Shown: positions 55,069-64,000 of the stretch, in pieces | Numbering within the stretch: position 1 is the first letter of the stretch | Layout: every line of letters starts with the position of its first letter | NCBI RefSeq assembly: GCF_013387465.1 | Contig: NZ_VYGV01000025.1 | Location: 173,755-237,754 of the forward strand | DNA length: 64,000 bases | Source: Hydrogenophaga aromaticivorans | GTDB taxonomy: Bacteria > Pseudomonadota > Gammaproteobacteria > Burkholderiales > Burkholderiaceae_C | Direction of reading: 5' to 3' | The notes under the pieces: model-generated | Databases searched by the model: none | The model's input: the letters and a program-made list of their open reading frames with translations, nothing else | What the model was told of the DNA's origin: nothing | Position numbers and translations under genes: made by a program

Positions 55069-55425
55069 TCAAAAATCCAGTTCGAACCAGGCCGGCTCTT
55101 TCTGGCGCAGCTGGGCGATCAGTTCCAGCGTGGCCGGCACCAGGGCGTGGATGCCATACCAGACTTCTTCGCGCCGCGGCTGGCCGTCGCTCTCCAGCAG
55201 GCCCTGCAGCCGGCCCCAGCCGTGCCAGTCCAGCTGGACAAGGCGCAGGCGCAGCGGCTCGGGCCAGTGCGCCAGGGTCTGCGCCATGCGCAGCAAATGC
55301 ATCTCCACACAGGCCAGGGTGTTGGCGCTGGCGAAGAGCTCGTCTTCGCCCTGCAGCTCGGCGAGCAGGCTCGTCGTGACCTCGCCGCTGTTCTGCAGGA
55401 TCAGGTACTGCATGCGGGCGATCAT
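55069..55425 (-). CDS. Unknown nif-operon protein, 118 aa
   Basis: Not recognised. A mainly helical, acidic soluble protein: MIARMQYLILQNSGEVTTSL, a middle LACVEMHLLRMAQTLAHWPE, and a C-terminus rich in Trp (WHGWGRLQGLLE, WYGIHALVPATLELIAQL, PAWFELDF). It has no Cys pair, signal peptide or membrane helix. Its ATG overlaps the stop of the AAA+ ATPase gene (ATGA), so equimolar expression with that ATPase is likely and it may be a partner or adaptor. Confidence 0.7.
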   Translation of the reverse strand: MIARMQYLILQNSGEVTTSLLAELQGEDELFASANTLACVEMHLLRMAQTLAHWPEPLRLRLVQLDWHGWGRLQGLLESDGQPRREEVWYGIHALVPATLELIAQLRQKEPAWFELDF

Positions 55426-57128
55426 GGTGTGCCCACCGGGTCGAGTCCACGGAACATCGCACAGCGCAAAAACACCTCGCGGCTCGCGCCGACCTGCTTG
55501 TGCCGGCAGTACTTGGCGACCAGCTTGGCCAGGCCCTTGATGTCACGCCCGGTCGCGGCCGGGAACAGATCGGCCAGCATCTGCGGCATGCCGGGCGCCA
55601 GCGCCAGCGCGAACTGCTCGCCCATCACGCCCCAGATCCGCGCTCGCGCGGCGGCGTCGGGCGCGTGGTAGCGGATCAGCGCGATGCAGCGGGAGACGAT
55701 GGCCTCGTCGATGTCGTCGACGCGGTTGGTGGTCAGGAACAGCAGGCCGTTGAAGTACTCCAGCACGCGCAGGAACACGCCCACCACGGCGTTCATGGTC
55801 AGGTTGTCGTCGCGCTTCTTGATGTAGACGTCGGCCTCGTCGATCAGCAGCACCGCCCCCCAGCGCTGGGCGCGCTGCAGCACGTCCTTCAGCGCGGTTT
55901 CCATGGTGGCCACGTTCAGGCCGAGCTGTCCCGAGTGCACGCGGTAGAGCGGGCGCTGGATGATCTCGGCGTAGACCTCGGCGGTGAGCGTCTTGCCGAC
56001 GCCGGGCGGGCCGGCGCAGAGCACCGTGGTGCCGCCGGACTTGCCGGCGATGATGTCGTCCATCAGCACGTCCATCTCGGCGGTGAGGATGTCGATCAGG
56101 TCGGTCTGCTCGGGCGGCAGCACCAGCAGCTGCTTGAGCTGGGGCTTGTAGGCGTAGGGTTCGAGGTCGTCCACGTGCACCCACACATGGTGGTGCAGCT
56201 CCAGGTGGAACATCAGGATCAGCGGGTGCACCGGCAGCTGGCGGAACAGGCGCGGCCTGTTCTGCAATGCGGCCTTCAGGGCCAGCACATCCTGCTCGGC
56301 GTCGTACTGGCTGCTCTTGGCGGCCTTGTTCAGGTAGTTGCTCAACAGCTCGCCGGTGGTCTCCAGGCTGGTGTCGCGCTGCTGCAGCACGGCCTCGTCG
56401 TTCACCAGGCGCGCCGCTTCGCCGTTGGCCGACAGGATCACGATGTCCTTGCGCAGCCAGTCGCTGTCACGGTGGGTGGCGCTCGGGTCGGGCGCGTGAA
56501 AGGCCAGGCCGCGGCCAAGGAACTGGGCACCGCTTTGCGCACGCCACTCGAAGTACGTGCCCACCGACGCTTCGTAGGCCCGCAGCAGCTCGGGCGTCTC
56601 GCGCACCAGGCCGCGCGCGAGCAGCAGCTCGGCCACGCTGCGACCGATCACGTCGTTGCCCGAGAGGCGCAGGGTCTGGTTGACCAGGCCGCCCTTTGCG
56701 TTGGCCTTGAGGTCGAGGTAGACCTTGCCGGTTTCGTCGTTCGAGGGCGGGGTGTAGTCGATGCGCGTCGGGCACCAGGCCAGCGGCACGCCGTCGGTGT
56801 CGGCGCTGAACAGCCAGCCGTGCGTGCTGCCCTCGGCCAGGTAAGCCACCAGCGCGGGCACCACGTCTTCCAGCGTGTCGGCCGTGAAGCGCTGGGCGCC
56901 GGGCACGCCAAGCAAGCCACGCAGCGAACGCAGCTGCACGGCGCGGCGCTGCTGGGCCGGGCCGCCCGCGTCCCAGAGTTGGTCGAGCCGGTCCAGCACC
57001 GGCGCGCTGAGCAGGCGCAGCCGGGTCTCGGCGTGCTGCCCGAAACGCAGCTGGTCCGTCAGGCCGGCCAGCTCGGGGAATTCCTCGGCCAGGGTCTGGG
57101 CATGGGTGCGTTCGATGCGCAGCTTCAT
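55422..57128 (-). CDS. AAA+ ATPase in nif operon
   Basis: A 568-residue cytoplasmic protein. The C-terminal third is an AAA+ module: Walker A GPPGVGKT at 373-380, Walker B LLIDEAD at 427-433, sensor 1 FLTTN ending at Asn468, and a putative arginine finger at Arg480 (IVSRC). The 350-residue N-terminal part is unlike any domain I recognise. By analogy with other AAA+ proteins it may remodel or activate a protein complex, and the position inside a nitrogenase operon makes nitrogenase or its maturation factors candidate clients. It is coupled to the 118-aa protein downstream and follows the 161-aa unknown by 19 bases. Confidence 0.85.
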   Translation of the reverse strand: MKLRIERTHAQTLAEEFPELAGLTDQLRFGQHAETRLRLLSAPVLDRLDQLWDAGGPAQQRRAVQLRSLRGLLGVPGAQRFTADTLEDVVPALVAYLAEGSTHGWLFSADTDGVPLAWCPTRIDYTPPSNDETGKVYLDLKANAKGGLVNQTLRLSGNDVIGRSVAELLLARGLVRETPELLRAYEASVGTYFEWRAQSGAQFLGRGLAFHAPDPSATHRDSDWLRKDIVILSANGEAARLVNDEAVLQQRDTSLETTGELLSNYLNKAAKSSQYDAEQDVLALKAALQNRPRLFRQLPVHPLILMFHLELHHHVWVHVDDLEPYAYKPQLKQLLVLPPEQTDLIDILTAEMDVLMDDIIAGKSGGTTVLCAGPPGVGKTLTAEVYAEIIQRPLYRVHSGQLGLNVATMETALKDVLQRAQRWGAVLLIDEADVYIKKRDDNLTMNAVVGVFLRVLEYFNGLLFLTTNRVDDIDEAIVSRCIALIRYHAPDAAARARIWGVMGEQFALALAPGMPQMLADLFPAATGRDIKGLAKLVAKYCRHKQVGASREVFLRCAMFRGLDPVGTP

Positions 57129-57147
57129 GGCCGTGGATCGGTGGGGA

Positions 57148-57633
57148 TCAGTTGTCGTCGGCCAGCACTTCCAGCGCCACCAGCTGTTCGTACAGGGCGC
57201 GCCGCGCGTGCCAGTTGTCTTTGCCGGCGATGCGCGGGTCGGCGCCTTCAAATGCGCCGATGGCGTCGCGGTCGCCGCGGTAGACGCAGGTGAGCCCGCC
57301 GCGCGCGGCCAGCGCGGCCTCCAGCGCCGCGGCCTCGCTCACCGGCTCGGCGCTCAGCACGCCGCTGCCGAGCAGGTGGTCTGCGCGGTACAGGGCCGTG
57401 TCCCAGCCGTGGCTGTCACCGAGCGCGCAGATGGCCGGGTAGCGTTCGCGCGCCAGCGCATCCACCTCGGCGTGGCCGATGTCTTCGAGCAGGCCACGCG
57501 CGGTCAACTGGTCGTGGATTTCCCAGGGCTCCAGTGGGTCACCGGCCGCGACCTTGCGGGCGAAGTCGGCCTCGTCGTAGGCGAACCAGGCGCGCGGGGC
57601 GGCTTGTTCGGGCACTTCCACCACATAGATCAT
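57148..57633 (-). CDS. Unknown nif-operon protein, 161 aa
   Basis: Not recognised. An acidic soluble protein starting MIYVVEVPEQAAPRAWFAYD, with YPAICALGDSHGWDTALYRA in the middle and a helical C-terminus (DNWHARRALYEQLVALEVLA). There is no signal peptide, membrane segment or Cys cluster. It precedes the AAA+ gene by 19 bases and follows the 124-aa unknown after a 119-base gap, so it probably belongs to the same unit and may work with the ATPase. Confidence 0.7.
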   Translation of the reverse strand: MIYVVEVPEQAAPRAWFAYDEADFARKVAAGDPLEPWEIHDQLTARGLLEDIGHAEVDALARERYPAICALGDSHGWDTALYRADHLLGSGVLSAEPVSEAAALEAALAARGGLTCVYRGDRDAIGAFEGADPRIAGKDNWHARRALYEQLVALEVLADDN

Positions 57634-61806: not shown

Positions 61807-62781
<975 letters not shown>

Positions 62782-62833: not shown

Positions 62834-62849
62834 TGCAGCTTCCGTGCCA
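62834..62849 (-). promoter_or_regulatory. Sigma-54 promoter of nifH
   Basis: On the minus strand TGGCACGGAAGCTGCA (62849 to 62834) matches the -24/-12 consensus TGGCACG-N4-TTGCA with one mismatch (C for the first T of -12) and exact GG-N10-GC spacing. The predicted leader is about 120 bases. Confidence 0.85.
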
Positions 62850-62868
62850 TGTTGTTTGGCCTCTGTTT

Positions 62869-62884
62869 TGTCGCTCTTGAAACA
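62869..62884. promoter_or_regulatory. NifA-type site, promoter-proximal
   Basis: TGT (62869-62871), 10 bases, ACA (62882-62884). It fits the NifA upstream-activator consensus but lies only about 20 bases from the nifH -24 element, closer than usual activator sites, so it may be a secondary site or a chance match. Confidence 0.4.
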
Positions 62885-62944
62885 GGGCCTTCACAGAGGG
62901 AAAAGTGCACTTTTCAGGGCTCGCTGCGGGCGCCGCTTGGGCTT

Positions 62945-62960
62945 TGTCCTGTTCCCGACA
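62945..62960. promoter_or_regulatory. NifA upstream activator site, central
   Basis: TGT-CCTGTTCCCG-ACA is a perfect TGT-N10-ACA NifA site. Its centre is about 104 bases from the GG of the nifH -24 element and about 102 bases from the GG of the divergent globin -24 element, an ideal looping distance for both. Confidence 0.85.
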
Positions 62961-63052
62961 AAACGGCGAAATCCGTCGCACACACATCGCGTCGAAGGGT
63001 CGCCGCGGCGGCTTTGTGTCGCATTTGATGGCCGCGGGTGGACAAATCCGCC

Positions 63053-63068
63053 TGGTACGGTCATTGCT
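63053..63068 (+). promoter_or_regulatory. Sigma-54 promoter of the truncated hemoglobin operon
   Basis: TGGTACGGTCATTGCT matches the consensus TGGCACG-N4-TTGCW with a single mismatch and exact GG-N10-GC spacing. Counting about 12 bases from the GC, transcription would start near 63079, right beside the ATG at 63081. Confidence 0.82.
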
Positions 63069-63080
63069 CTTTAGAGAGGC

Positions 63081-63539
63081 ATGAACCTGCCCCACGCGCT
63101 CACCACCGAACCGGTCGCGCCGCCCTCGCACTTTGAAGCGATCGGTGGCCAGACGGCGGTGGACCGCCTGGTGAATGCCTTCTACGCCCAGATGGACAGC
63201 CGCAGCGATTCGCGCGGCATCCGCGCCATGCACGAGCCCGATCTGGGCCACACCAAGGCCGTGCTGCGGCTGTACTTGGCCGAGTGGCTGGGCGGCCCCA
63301 AGGACTACACGGCGCAGCGCGGCCACCCGCGTCTGCGCATGCGCCACGCGGCCTTTCCCATCGGCGTGCCCGAGCGCGATGCCTGGCTCGCCTGCATGGA
63401 CGCCGCGATGCAGCAGACCGGCGTTCCCGCGGACCTGCACCGCGTGCTGATGGCGGCCTTCTTCAAGACCGCCGACTGGATGCGCAACACCCCAAACCCC
63501 CCGGCAATCCCTGCCACCAACCCGAAGGAAGCTCCATGA
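63081..63539 (+). CDS. Group II truncated hemoglobin
   Basis: A 152-residue 2-over-2 globin that binds heme and O2 or NO. Key positions are Tyr35 (B10, VNAFYAQMD), the proximal His89 (F8, LRMRHAAFPIG), and Trp102 (G8, ERDAWLACM), the Trp that marks group II. VLRLYLAEWLGGPKDYTAQR is the family E/F region. An N-terminal 15-residue tail precedes the fold. AGAGAGG precedes the ATG but may fall outside the transcript. It is divergent from nifH with its own sigma-54 promoter, and its stop overlaps the next gene by ATGA. Confidence 0.93.
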   Translation: MNLPHALTTEPVAPPSHFEAIGGQTAVDRLVNAFYAQMDSRSDSRGIRAMHEPDLGHTKAVLRLYLAEWLGGPKDYTAQRGHPRLRMRHAAFPIGVPERDAWLACMDAAMQQTGVPADLHRVLMAAFFKTADWMRNTPNPPAIPATNPKEAP

Positions 63540-64000
63540 CCGCCACCCTGGCCACCAAAGAGATCGACGACACCGCGTTCGCCCGCCTGGACGACGAAGG
63601 CCGCCTGCTCAACCCCCTGCTCAAGGGCAGCACCAACAAGTTCGGCCGGGTCGGCTTTCGCGGCGAACTCGCGCTGCGTTTTGCGCCCAAGCTGGCCGAC
63701 GAAGCGCGTCCGCCCGAACTGCTGTGCGGCCAGGCCATGGCGGTGGGCACCGTGGGCGAGAAAACCCTGTCTTTCTTCGCAGGCTACCTGCTGAGCTTCG
63801 AGTACCTGAAGGACGTGGCCGAGGTGCTGGGCGACACGCTGAGCGCGGGCGGCAAGTACTTCCTGTTCTGCAACAACATCGACCTCTCGAAGAAGTACCA
63901 GGTGCCGTACAAGGGCGCGATGTTCTACGTGCTGCCGATCGACGAAGCCACGGTCTACAACGAACTGCTCGACCTGTTCTACTTGGAGAAGGGCGACCTG
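63536..64000 (+). CDS. Unknown protein coupled to the globin, cut by window end
   Basis: Not recognised. The ATG at 63536 overlaps the globin stop (ATGA) and has GAAGGAAG upstream, so it is certainly translated with it. At least 155 residues are open to the window edge. It begins MTATLATKEIDDTAFARLDD; later come STNKFGRVGFRGELALRFAP, MAVGTVGEKTLSFFAGYLLS and YFLFCNNIDLSKKYQVPYKG. It looks soluble and alpha/beta, with no signal peptide, Cys motif or nucleotide loop in the visible part. Its likely NifA/sigma-54 control suggests a nitrogen-fixation role. Confidence 0.8.
   Translation, partial: MTATLATKEIDDTAFARLDDEGRLLNPLLKGSTNKFGRVGFRGELALRFAPKLADEARPPELLCGQAMAVGTVGEKTLSFFAGYLLSFEYLKDVAEVLGDTLSAGGKYFLFCNNIDLSKKYQVPYKGAMFYVLPIDEATVYNELLDLFYLEKGDL

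What the first reader, a model, noticed from the sequence alone, without database searches (positions are those of the whole stretch)
62834..63068. nifH and a truncated hemoglobin share one central NifA site between divergent sigma-54 promoters
The region has a -24/-12 promoter facing nifH (62834-62849), another facing the globin (63053-63068), and one perfect TGT-N10-ACA site (62945-62960) about 104 and 102 bases from the two GG doublets. The near-symmetric geometry suggests a single NifA dimer site drives both. A globin in a nif locus is known from cyanobacteria (glbN of Nostoc commune), but a group II globin under apparent NifA control in a betaproteobacterium would be a distinct solution to O2 or NO control during nitrogen fixation.
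Basis: partly seen in the sequence, partly recalled or inferred. Interest (0 to 1): 0.78.

Follow-up and report, generated by a model that had tools for sequence, protein, structure and literature searches.

The report
Nitrogenase-linked bacterial hemoglobin with shared switch
In many nitrogen-fixing beta-proteobacteria a small hemoglobin gene sits back to back with the nitrogenase gene nifH around one shared regulator site, and its message appears to begin at its own start codon; globins in such gene clusters were noted in print in 2011, but the conserved layout and the missing leader look new.

Summary
Sigma-54 promoters for nifH (62834-62849, -) and a group II truncated hemoglobin (63053-63068, +) flank a TGT-N10-ACA site at 62945-62960; a second perfect site (62869-62884) was missed and is kept only in the closest relatives. 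All 26 related loci with nifH beside the globin keep the three elements; of 54 globin relatives without nifH nearby, none has promoter plus site. The globin promoter lies 27-30 bases from the ATG in all 29 loci measured, so the transcript should be leaderless or nearly so, whereas nifH has a leader of about 120-160 bases with GGAG or GGAA. A blind search for promoter plus ATG in 299 family genomes gave 36 matches (reversed control 35), 12 of them globins; all 12 have the NifA-type site, against 0 of 22 unrelated matches. The globin appears to head an operon with a conserved unknown protein (ORF2), draT and draG. In Paraburkholderia phymatum, which has ORF2 without the globin beside nifH, the ORF2 copies show the largest finite drops among listed symbiotic-plasmid genes in nifA-mutant nodules. 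NifA-controlled globins in a beta-proteobacterial nif cluster are in print (PMC3093359); the leaderless layout and ORF2/DraTG link appear new.

The parts
61807..62700 (-). nifH (ATG at 62700), nitrogenase Fe protein
   Evidence: TIGR01287 over cut-off; start codon
62708..62711 (-). GGAG Shine-Dalgarno-like element of nifH
   Evidence: 20 bases upstream of the ATG; GGAG in 27 of the 29 loci listed there, GGAA in L040 and L045 (read by eye)
62834..62849 (-). sigma-54 promoter facing nifH, TGGCACGGAAGCTGCA
62869..62884 (.). second perfect TGT-N10-ACA, close to the nifH promoter (19-base gap); in 7 of 29 loci only
62945..62960 (.). central NifA-type upstream activator site TGTCCTGTTCCCGACA
   Evidence: 29 of 29 loci
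63053..63068 (+). sigma-54 promoter facing the globin, TGGTACGGTCATTGCT
63078..63081 (+). expected transcription start (about 12 bases after the -12 C; rule recalled), 0-3 bases before the globin ATG; inferred, not mapped
   Evidence: spacing counted
63081..63539 (+). group II truncated hemoglobin, 152 aa
   Evidence: PF01152 E=4.1e-34; PDB relatives 5d1v, 1ngk (HbO), 2xyk
63536..64000 (+). ORF2, nif-linked protein of unknown function, overlaps the globin stop (ATGA); cut by the window end, 202 aa in full in L004:4291-4899; followed outside the window by draT and draG

Best explanation
A NifA-type enhancer between two facing sigma-54 promoters turns on nifHDK on one side and a globin-ORF2-draT-draG operon on the other. 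The globin message starts at, or within about 1-4 bases of, its AUG and is translated as a leaderless mRNA, while nifH has a leader with a ribosome-binding site. The globin is then made only under nitrogen-fixing, low-O2 conditions and most likely binds O2 or NO in the cytoplasm, to feed respiration or keep nitrogenase safe, beside the DraT/DraG switch for the Fe protein. Shown here: the DNA layout, its conservation, the gene order and the absence of a well-placed ribosome-binding site. Inferred: NifA binding, the transcription start, co-transcription, leaderless translation and the role of the globin.
For: 26 of 26 nifH-linked relatives among the 80 loci keep both promoters and the UAS, and 26 of 26 have the in-frame promoter-ATG spacing plus a UAS; of the 54 other globin relatives 1 has the spacing and 0 have both (three of the 54 have under 300 bases upstream; the spacing range was set after seeing the 26). 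Promoter start to ATG is 27-30 bases in all 29 loci and 28 in L112; nifH ATGs lie 146-188 bases from the first base of their promoter (printed as 147-189) with GGAG or GGAA in all 29. Blind pattern search of 299 family genomes: 36 matches, 12 globins; UAS within 200 bp in 12 of 12 globins, 2 of 2 nifH-ORF2 loci, 0 of 22 others. In three genomes a globin-draT-draG unit has no nifH within the stretch of 10 kb (L162, L166, L167) and keeps its own UAS 92-111 bases upstream. P. phymatum keeps the globin-type promoter, has no globin beside nifH, and its ORF2 copies fall by log2 11.54 and 11.11 in nifA nodules. nifA present. Nif-linked globins of Burkholderiales form one clade (30 rows, 98/91).
Against: No transcription start, NifA footprint or globin phenotype was measured in anything I read. 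In L040 the UAS is only 8 bases from the globin -24 box. In P. phymatum the site reads CGT-N10-ACA and fails the strict pattern, yet the gene is strongly NifA-dependent; its nifH1-facing site has 4 mismatches. L022 has globin and ORF2 but no such promoter in its short upstream stretch. Helical phasing of the UAS-globin gaps looked good on the first set (p 0.008) but fades when the later loci are added (p 0.09). In the family-wide pattern search the total (36) is about the same as the reversed control (35, hand count), so promoter plus ATG alone is not evidence. The window has AGAGAGG before the globin ATG, but its last G lies one base from the ATG, too close by the usual spacing (recalled). 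The genome has 16 further NifA-HMM matches below the cut-off, so another sigma-54 activator is possible.
Confidence: 0.72

Rival explanations
1. The globin-facing promoter is real, but the globin is a passenger: the selected product of the divergent operon is ORF2 (and DraT/DraG), and the globin is a dispensable O2/NO accessory.
For: ORF2 is better conserved than the globin (87% mean column identity; globin 54-95% identity to the window among the 26 loci). ORF2 stays next to nifH without a globin in L108-L110, in three Paraburkholderia symbiosis plasmids and in L169/L170. By hand count, 44 of 47 ORF2 genomes carry nifH over the cut-off (some of the 47 matches are only 23-33% identical).
Against: The globin forms its own nif-linked clade and keeps promoter, UAS and spacing where nifH and ORF2 are not beside it, still next to draT and draG (L162, L166, L167).
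Confidence: 0.3
2. The globin detoxifies NO or peroxide (HbO-like chemistry) rather than handling O2, protecting nitrogenase or NifA in denitrifying or microaerobic cells.
For: Closest solved relatives are group II truncated globins, a group with reported NO and peroxide chemistry (recalled).
Against: The evident control is the NifA type; NO-responsive sites or NO genes were not searched for.
Confidence: 0.3
3. The central UAS serves nifH only; the globin promoter is driven by another activator or by NifA bound elsewhere.
For: The gap from the central UAS to the nifH site is tighter (77-112) than to the globin site (8-190); L040 has an 8-base gap; helical phasing of the globin-side gaps is not significant over all gaps (p 0.09).
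Against: Globins without nifH nearby carry a UAS of their own, and all 12 globins of the blind search have one within 200 bp.
Confidence: 0.15
4. Chance motifs in a GC-rich intergenic region.
For: Motif counts in the window as a whole are below the shuffled expectation.
Against: Promoter plus UAS in 26 of 26 nifH-linked loci against 0 of 54 others, and the UAS in 29 of 29 against 0.66 expected.
Confidence: 0.01

Closest known systems
Globin-like genes in the nif clusters of Herbaspirillum seropedicae SmR1, Burkholderia xenovorans LB400 and B. vietnamiensis G4 (Pedrosa et al. 2011, PMC3093359; passage read)
   Same: Beta-proteobacteria with a globin in the nif cluster; for H. seropedicae a putative NifA-regulated promoter is stated. 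P. xenovorans LB400 is locus L025 here, with the layout described.
   Different: The passage I read gives no shared site, divergent geometry, leaderless start, ORF2 or DraTG link.
nrf2 (hemoglobin) and nrf3 (response regulator, sigma-N site) in an acid-mine-drainage nif-fix fosmid (PMC3912193; passages read)
   Same: Globin next to a nif-linked response regulator, as in L115 and L123.
   Different: In the gene tables read they lie next to sseA and mcpA, not divergent from nifH.
glbN of Nostoc commune
   Same: Globin in a nif region.
   Different: Cyanobacterial and a different truncated-globin group (recalled).
draT-azo0536-dcrH1 in the nif cluster of Azoarcus BH72 (PMC8467165 and PMC3916325; passages read)
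   Same: DraT together with a gene that has predicted NifA and RpoN sites; L116-L120 have draT-ORF2-draG beside nifH.
   Different: No globin mentioned in either paper's main text; whether azo0536 is ORF2 was not tested.

Membership tests
Group II truncated hemoglobin (Bac_globin) | Match to PF01152 above the gathering score | tested here: met
   117.8 bits against cut-off 21
Group II truncated hemoglobin (Bac_globin) | Best solved relatives are 2/2 group II globins; FYAQ, GHPRLRMRHA and ERDAWL blocks shared with HbO 1ngk (group and residue roles recalled) | tested here: met
   alignment
Group II truncated hemoglobin (Bac_globin) | Heme binding and reversible O2/NO binding | not testable with these tools
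   needs purified protein
NifA/sigma-54 promoter | GG-N10-GC at -24/-12 | tested here: met
NifA/sigma-54 promoter | TGT-N10-ACA upstream | tested here: met
NifA/sigma-54 promoter | nifA in the genome | tested here: met
   TIGR01817 650.1 bits against cut-off 528.85
NifA/sigma-54 promoter | Loss of expression without NifA | tested here: inconclusive
   published data seen only for ORF2 in P. phymatum, which has no globin beside nifH; not for the globin
Leaderless mRNA | 5' end at or within a few bases of AUG | not testable with these tools
   position predicted from the 27-30 base spacing in 29 of 29 loci
Leaderless mRNA | AUG start and no well-placed Shine-Dalgarno sequence | tested here: met
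   ATG in all 29 loci; duplex energies of the 20 bases upstream range from -0.5 to -6.4, and where strong (window group) the purine run abuts the ATG (placement read by eye)
DraT/DraG system | DRAT and ADP-ribosylglycohydrolase genes downstream | tested here: met
   PF07357 and PF03747 in L004

The most novel reading that the evidence does not exclude
A dedicated clade of globins is locked to nitrogen fixation by a sigma-54 promoter placed so that RNA synthesis begins at the start codon, giving leaderless, NifA-driven globin mRNA, and works with DraT/DraG and ORF2 as an O2- or NO-reporting arm of nitrogenase switch-off.
Probability: 0.25. Interest if true: 0.8.

Novelty: new variant of a known kind. 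Interest (0 to 1): 0.52.

Why it matters
How aerobic diazotrophs keep nitrogenase working beside respiration is an old question. This gives a testable, conserved module in named strains (Paraburkholderia xenovorans LB400, P. kururiensis, P. unamae, Hydrogenophaga sp. A37). It points to an unstudied NifA-dependent protein, ORF2, and to a likely natural case of sigma-54-driven leaderless translation.

Tried and rejected
Symmetry of the site as a meaningful feature: rejected, the gaps vary. Helical phasing of the UAS-globin gaps: p about 0.008 on the first 14 distinct gaps but 0.09 on all 19, so not claimed; the UAS-nifH gaps are not phased (p 0.7). Second UAS as a conserved part: rejected, 7 of 29 loci. 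IHF sites between the elements: strict consensus in 1 of 29. Promoter plus ATG as a genome-wide signature: rejected, 36 matches against 35 reversed-control matches (controls counted by hand); informative only together with the UAS. ORF2 identity: no Pfam match at E 1 (one distant homologue, L105, has a DUF6129 match below the cut-off at E 0.048), no NCBIfam match for the 155-aa part inside the window, PDB best E 0.059. Class survey: ORF2 in 9 of 369 genomes. My hope that the whole finding was unprinted: rejected by PMC3093359. Literature searches were made; none of the listings or passages I read describes a leaderless nif globin, but most subscription papers are not held.

Full report
What is there. 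The window lies in a 5.6-Mb genome (G000, contig C27) whose closest relatives are Hydrogenophaga and other Comamonadaceae. nifH runs leftward from 62700 and a group II truncated hemoglobin runs rightward from 63081. A second perfect TGT-N10-ACA at 62869-62884 was missed. Counts over the whole window are below the shuffled expectation, so the case rests on position and conservation.

Conservation. One search kept the best 80 of 135 loci with a relative of the globin. In 26 of the 80, nifH lies divergently beside it, in Hydrogenophaga, Acidovorax, Polaromonas, Aquabacterium, Variovorax, Ramlibacter, Pseudacidovorax, Paraburkholderia, Rhodoferax, Piscinibacter and unnamed beta-proteobacteria (plus one bin labelled Gammaproteobacteria). 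All 26 keep both promoters and the central site (GG and GC required, up to 3 mismatches). As a control, an in-frame sigma-54 site spaced to the globin ATG, together with a UAS, is in 26 of 26 of these and in 0 of the other 54. One of the 54 (L032, a Methylocystaceae bin with ORF2 next to the globin) has the promoter without the UAS; L022, with globin and ORF2, has neither, but it is one of three loci with under 300 bases upstream. The spacing range used was set after seeing the 26. Adding the window, L111 and L133 gives 29 loci: the UAS is in 29 of 29 against 0.66 expected from dinucleotide shuffles. L112 also has all three elements. In an alignment of 22 loci the UAS core is 100% identical, the promoters 93% and 88%, the rest of the spacer 56%, the bases between the -12 element and the globin ATG 57%, and the nifH leader 77%.

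Geometry. The central UAS lies 77-112 bases from the nifH promoter and 8-190 from the globin promoter over the 29 loci. The near symmetry in the window is therefore not a constant. An apparent helical phasing of the globin-side gaps (p about 0.008) fades to p 0.09 when the later loci are added, so I do not claim it.

A start codon at the transcription start. In all 29 loci the globin ATG lies 27-30 bases after the first base of the -24 element (28 in L112; the L111 value printed is one too low, because the start position I gave was one base early). With a start 12 bases after the -12 C (a rule recalled) this leaves a leader of 1-4 bases. In the window no other in-frame ATG, GTG or TTG is available near the domain start. 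The nifH start in the same 29 loci lies 146-188 bases from the first base of its promoter, with GGAG (27) or GGAA (2) at ordinary spacing. Leaderless mRNAs are known in bacteria: S. meliloti has 171 such starts, but that study could not see nif starts for lack of symbiotic samples (PMC3616915, passages read); in B. japonicum 320 starts map 0-10 bases before the start codon, and the motif found for them is an extended -10 box (PMC4842269, passages read). I saw no sigma-54 nif case in those passages. The start site here is inferred, not mapped.

Blind test. Searching 299 genomes of the family for TGGTACG-N4-TTGC-N11-15-ATG, with no protein information, gave 36 matches in 32 genomes. All 36 were examined: 12 precede a globin, 2 lie between nifH and ORF2 where the globin is missing, 22 are unrelated (L112 for G264). 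A UAS within 200 bp upstream is found in 12 of 12, 2 of 2 and 0 of 22. The globin matches use 27 or 28 bases only, though 26-30 were allowed. The total does not exceed the reversed control (35 by hand count). In the window's own genome the pattern occurs once, at this globin; the TGGCACG version does not occur.

Moved and lost globins. In L162, L166 and L167 a globin-draT-draG unit has no nifH match within the 10-kb stretch, yet it has a UAS 111, 93 and 92 bases upstream of the promoter (L167 also has a weak divergent promoter-like site). In the same two genomes as L166 and L167, nifH faces ORF2 with no globin between (L169, L170). Of 10 plasmid records with ORF2 I looked at 8. P. sprentiae and P. 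aromaticivorans keep globin plus ORF2; P. phymatum, P. sabiae and P. phenoliruptrix have nifH facing ORF2 without the globin; the two Cupriavidus taiwanensis records have ORF2 with no globin or nifH annotated in the stretch shown; one Bradyrhizobium record has ORF2 among nif genes with no globin annotated in the stretch shown. P. phymatum still has the globin-type promoter TGGTACGGATGTTGCA, 82 bases from a near-match CGT-N10-ACA.

Expression evidence. In bean nodules of a P. phymatum nifA mutant (PMC8305402, Table 1, which lists 142 genes of the symbiotic plasmid; passages read) the ORF2 gene Bphy_7752 falls by log2 11.54 and Bphy_7807 by 11.11, against nifD 10.05 and nifH 7.40 and 4.88. In the passages shown these are the largest finite drops; genes with no reads in the mutant are marked NA. 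Bphy_7807 has the same protein accession as the P. phenoliruptrix ORF2. This shows NifA dependence of the gene at the divergent place, not of a globin.

The operon. Downstream of the globin are ORF2 (overlapping ATGA), draT (PF07357), draG (PF03747) and a nitroreductase-family gene; co-transcription is inferred. ORF2 is 202 aa, 87% mean column identity over 24 sequences (L018 left out for an internal stop), with no Pfam match, none in NCBIfam for the part inside the window and no convincing PDB match. In 399 order genomes it occurs in 47 (some matches only 23-33% identical), 44 of which are among the 57 with nifH over the cut-off (overlap counted by hand). Other orders beside nifH are ORF2 alone (L108-L110), draT-ORF2-draG (L116-L120), response regulator-ORF2 (L113, L114, L101) and response regulator-globin-ORF2 (L115, L123) (the receiver domain was tested in L114 only). 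A non-polar mutant of PST1325, the gene listed next to nifH in P. stutzeri A1501, kept 23% nitrogenase activity (PMC2820453, passages read); what PST1325 is was not tested.

The globin clade. In a 90-row tree 30 nif-linked globins of Burkholderiales, the window's among them, form one group (98/91), apart from the 44 globins without nifH nearby that include the window genome's own paralogue L002. The nif label (36 rows) needs 3 changes on the tree against 28.5 in shuffles. L125 falls on the other side, L102, L111, L115, L123 and L032 fall outside the group of 30, and the second paralogue L003 joins the nif side on a very long branch. Few columns and long branches limit the detail.

Known and new. 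Pedrosa et al. 2011 (PMC3093359, passage read) already describe two globin-like genes behind a putative NifA-regulated promoter in the H. seropedicae nif cluster, note one globin-like gene in that cluster of B. xenovorans LB400 and B. vietnamiensis G4, and propose O2 delivery. An acid-mine nif cluster with a globin and a response regulator is in PMC3912193. The main idea of the finding is thus about fifteen years old. What I did not find in print (searches listed in Tried and rejected) is the conserved three-part layout, the leaderless start, the ORF2/DraTG coupling and the pattern of loss and relocation.

Noticed in passing
window 63536-64000 and L004:4291-4899: ORF2: a 202-aa protein of unknown function almost confined to nif genomes (44 of 47 by hand count), whose P. 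phymatum homologues show the largest finite drops among the listed symbiotic-plasmid genes in nifA nodules.
   Followed up: partly
window 62863-62885: CTGTTT-N11-AAACAG inverted repeat overlapping the second TGT-N10-ACA, close to the nifH promoter; may be another regulator site in the Hydrogenophaga group (read by eye).
   Followed up: no
L116 2850-2877, L119 3389-3417: In two draT-ORF2-draG loci the draT ATG also lies 27-28 bases from a weak sigma-54-like site (4 and 3 mismatches), perhaps a second leaderless case; L117, L118 and L120 were not checked.
   Followed up: partly
L113 4690-5145, L114 4354-4809, L115 4347-4772, L123 2758-3204, L101 960-1385: A short receiver-domain protein (Pfam tested in L114 only) sits between nifH and globin or ORF2 in several genomes.
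   Followed up: partly
L018 3435-4040: ORF2 of Variovorax ginsengisoli has an internal stop codon.
   Followed up: no
L033-L039, L041 and L052: Methylocystaceae globins related to this clade; five (L035, L036, L037, L041, L052) lie near a homologue of the AAA ATPase gene of the window's nif region, but none has the promoter-UAS layout.
   Followed up: partly
window 55422-57251: AAA ATPase between nifK and nifE with only weak family matches beyond the AAA domain.
   Followed up: no
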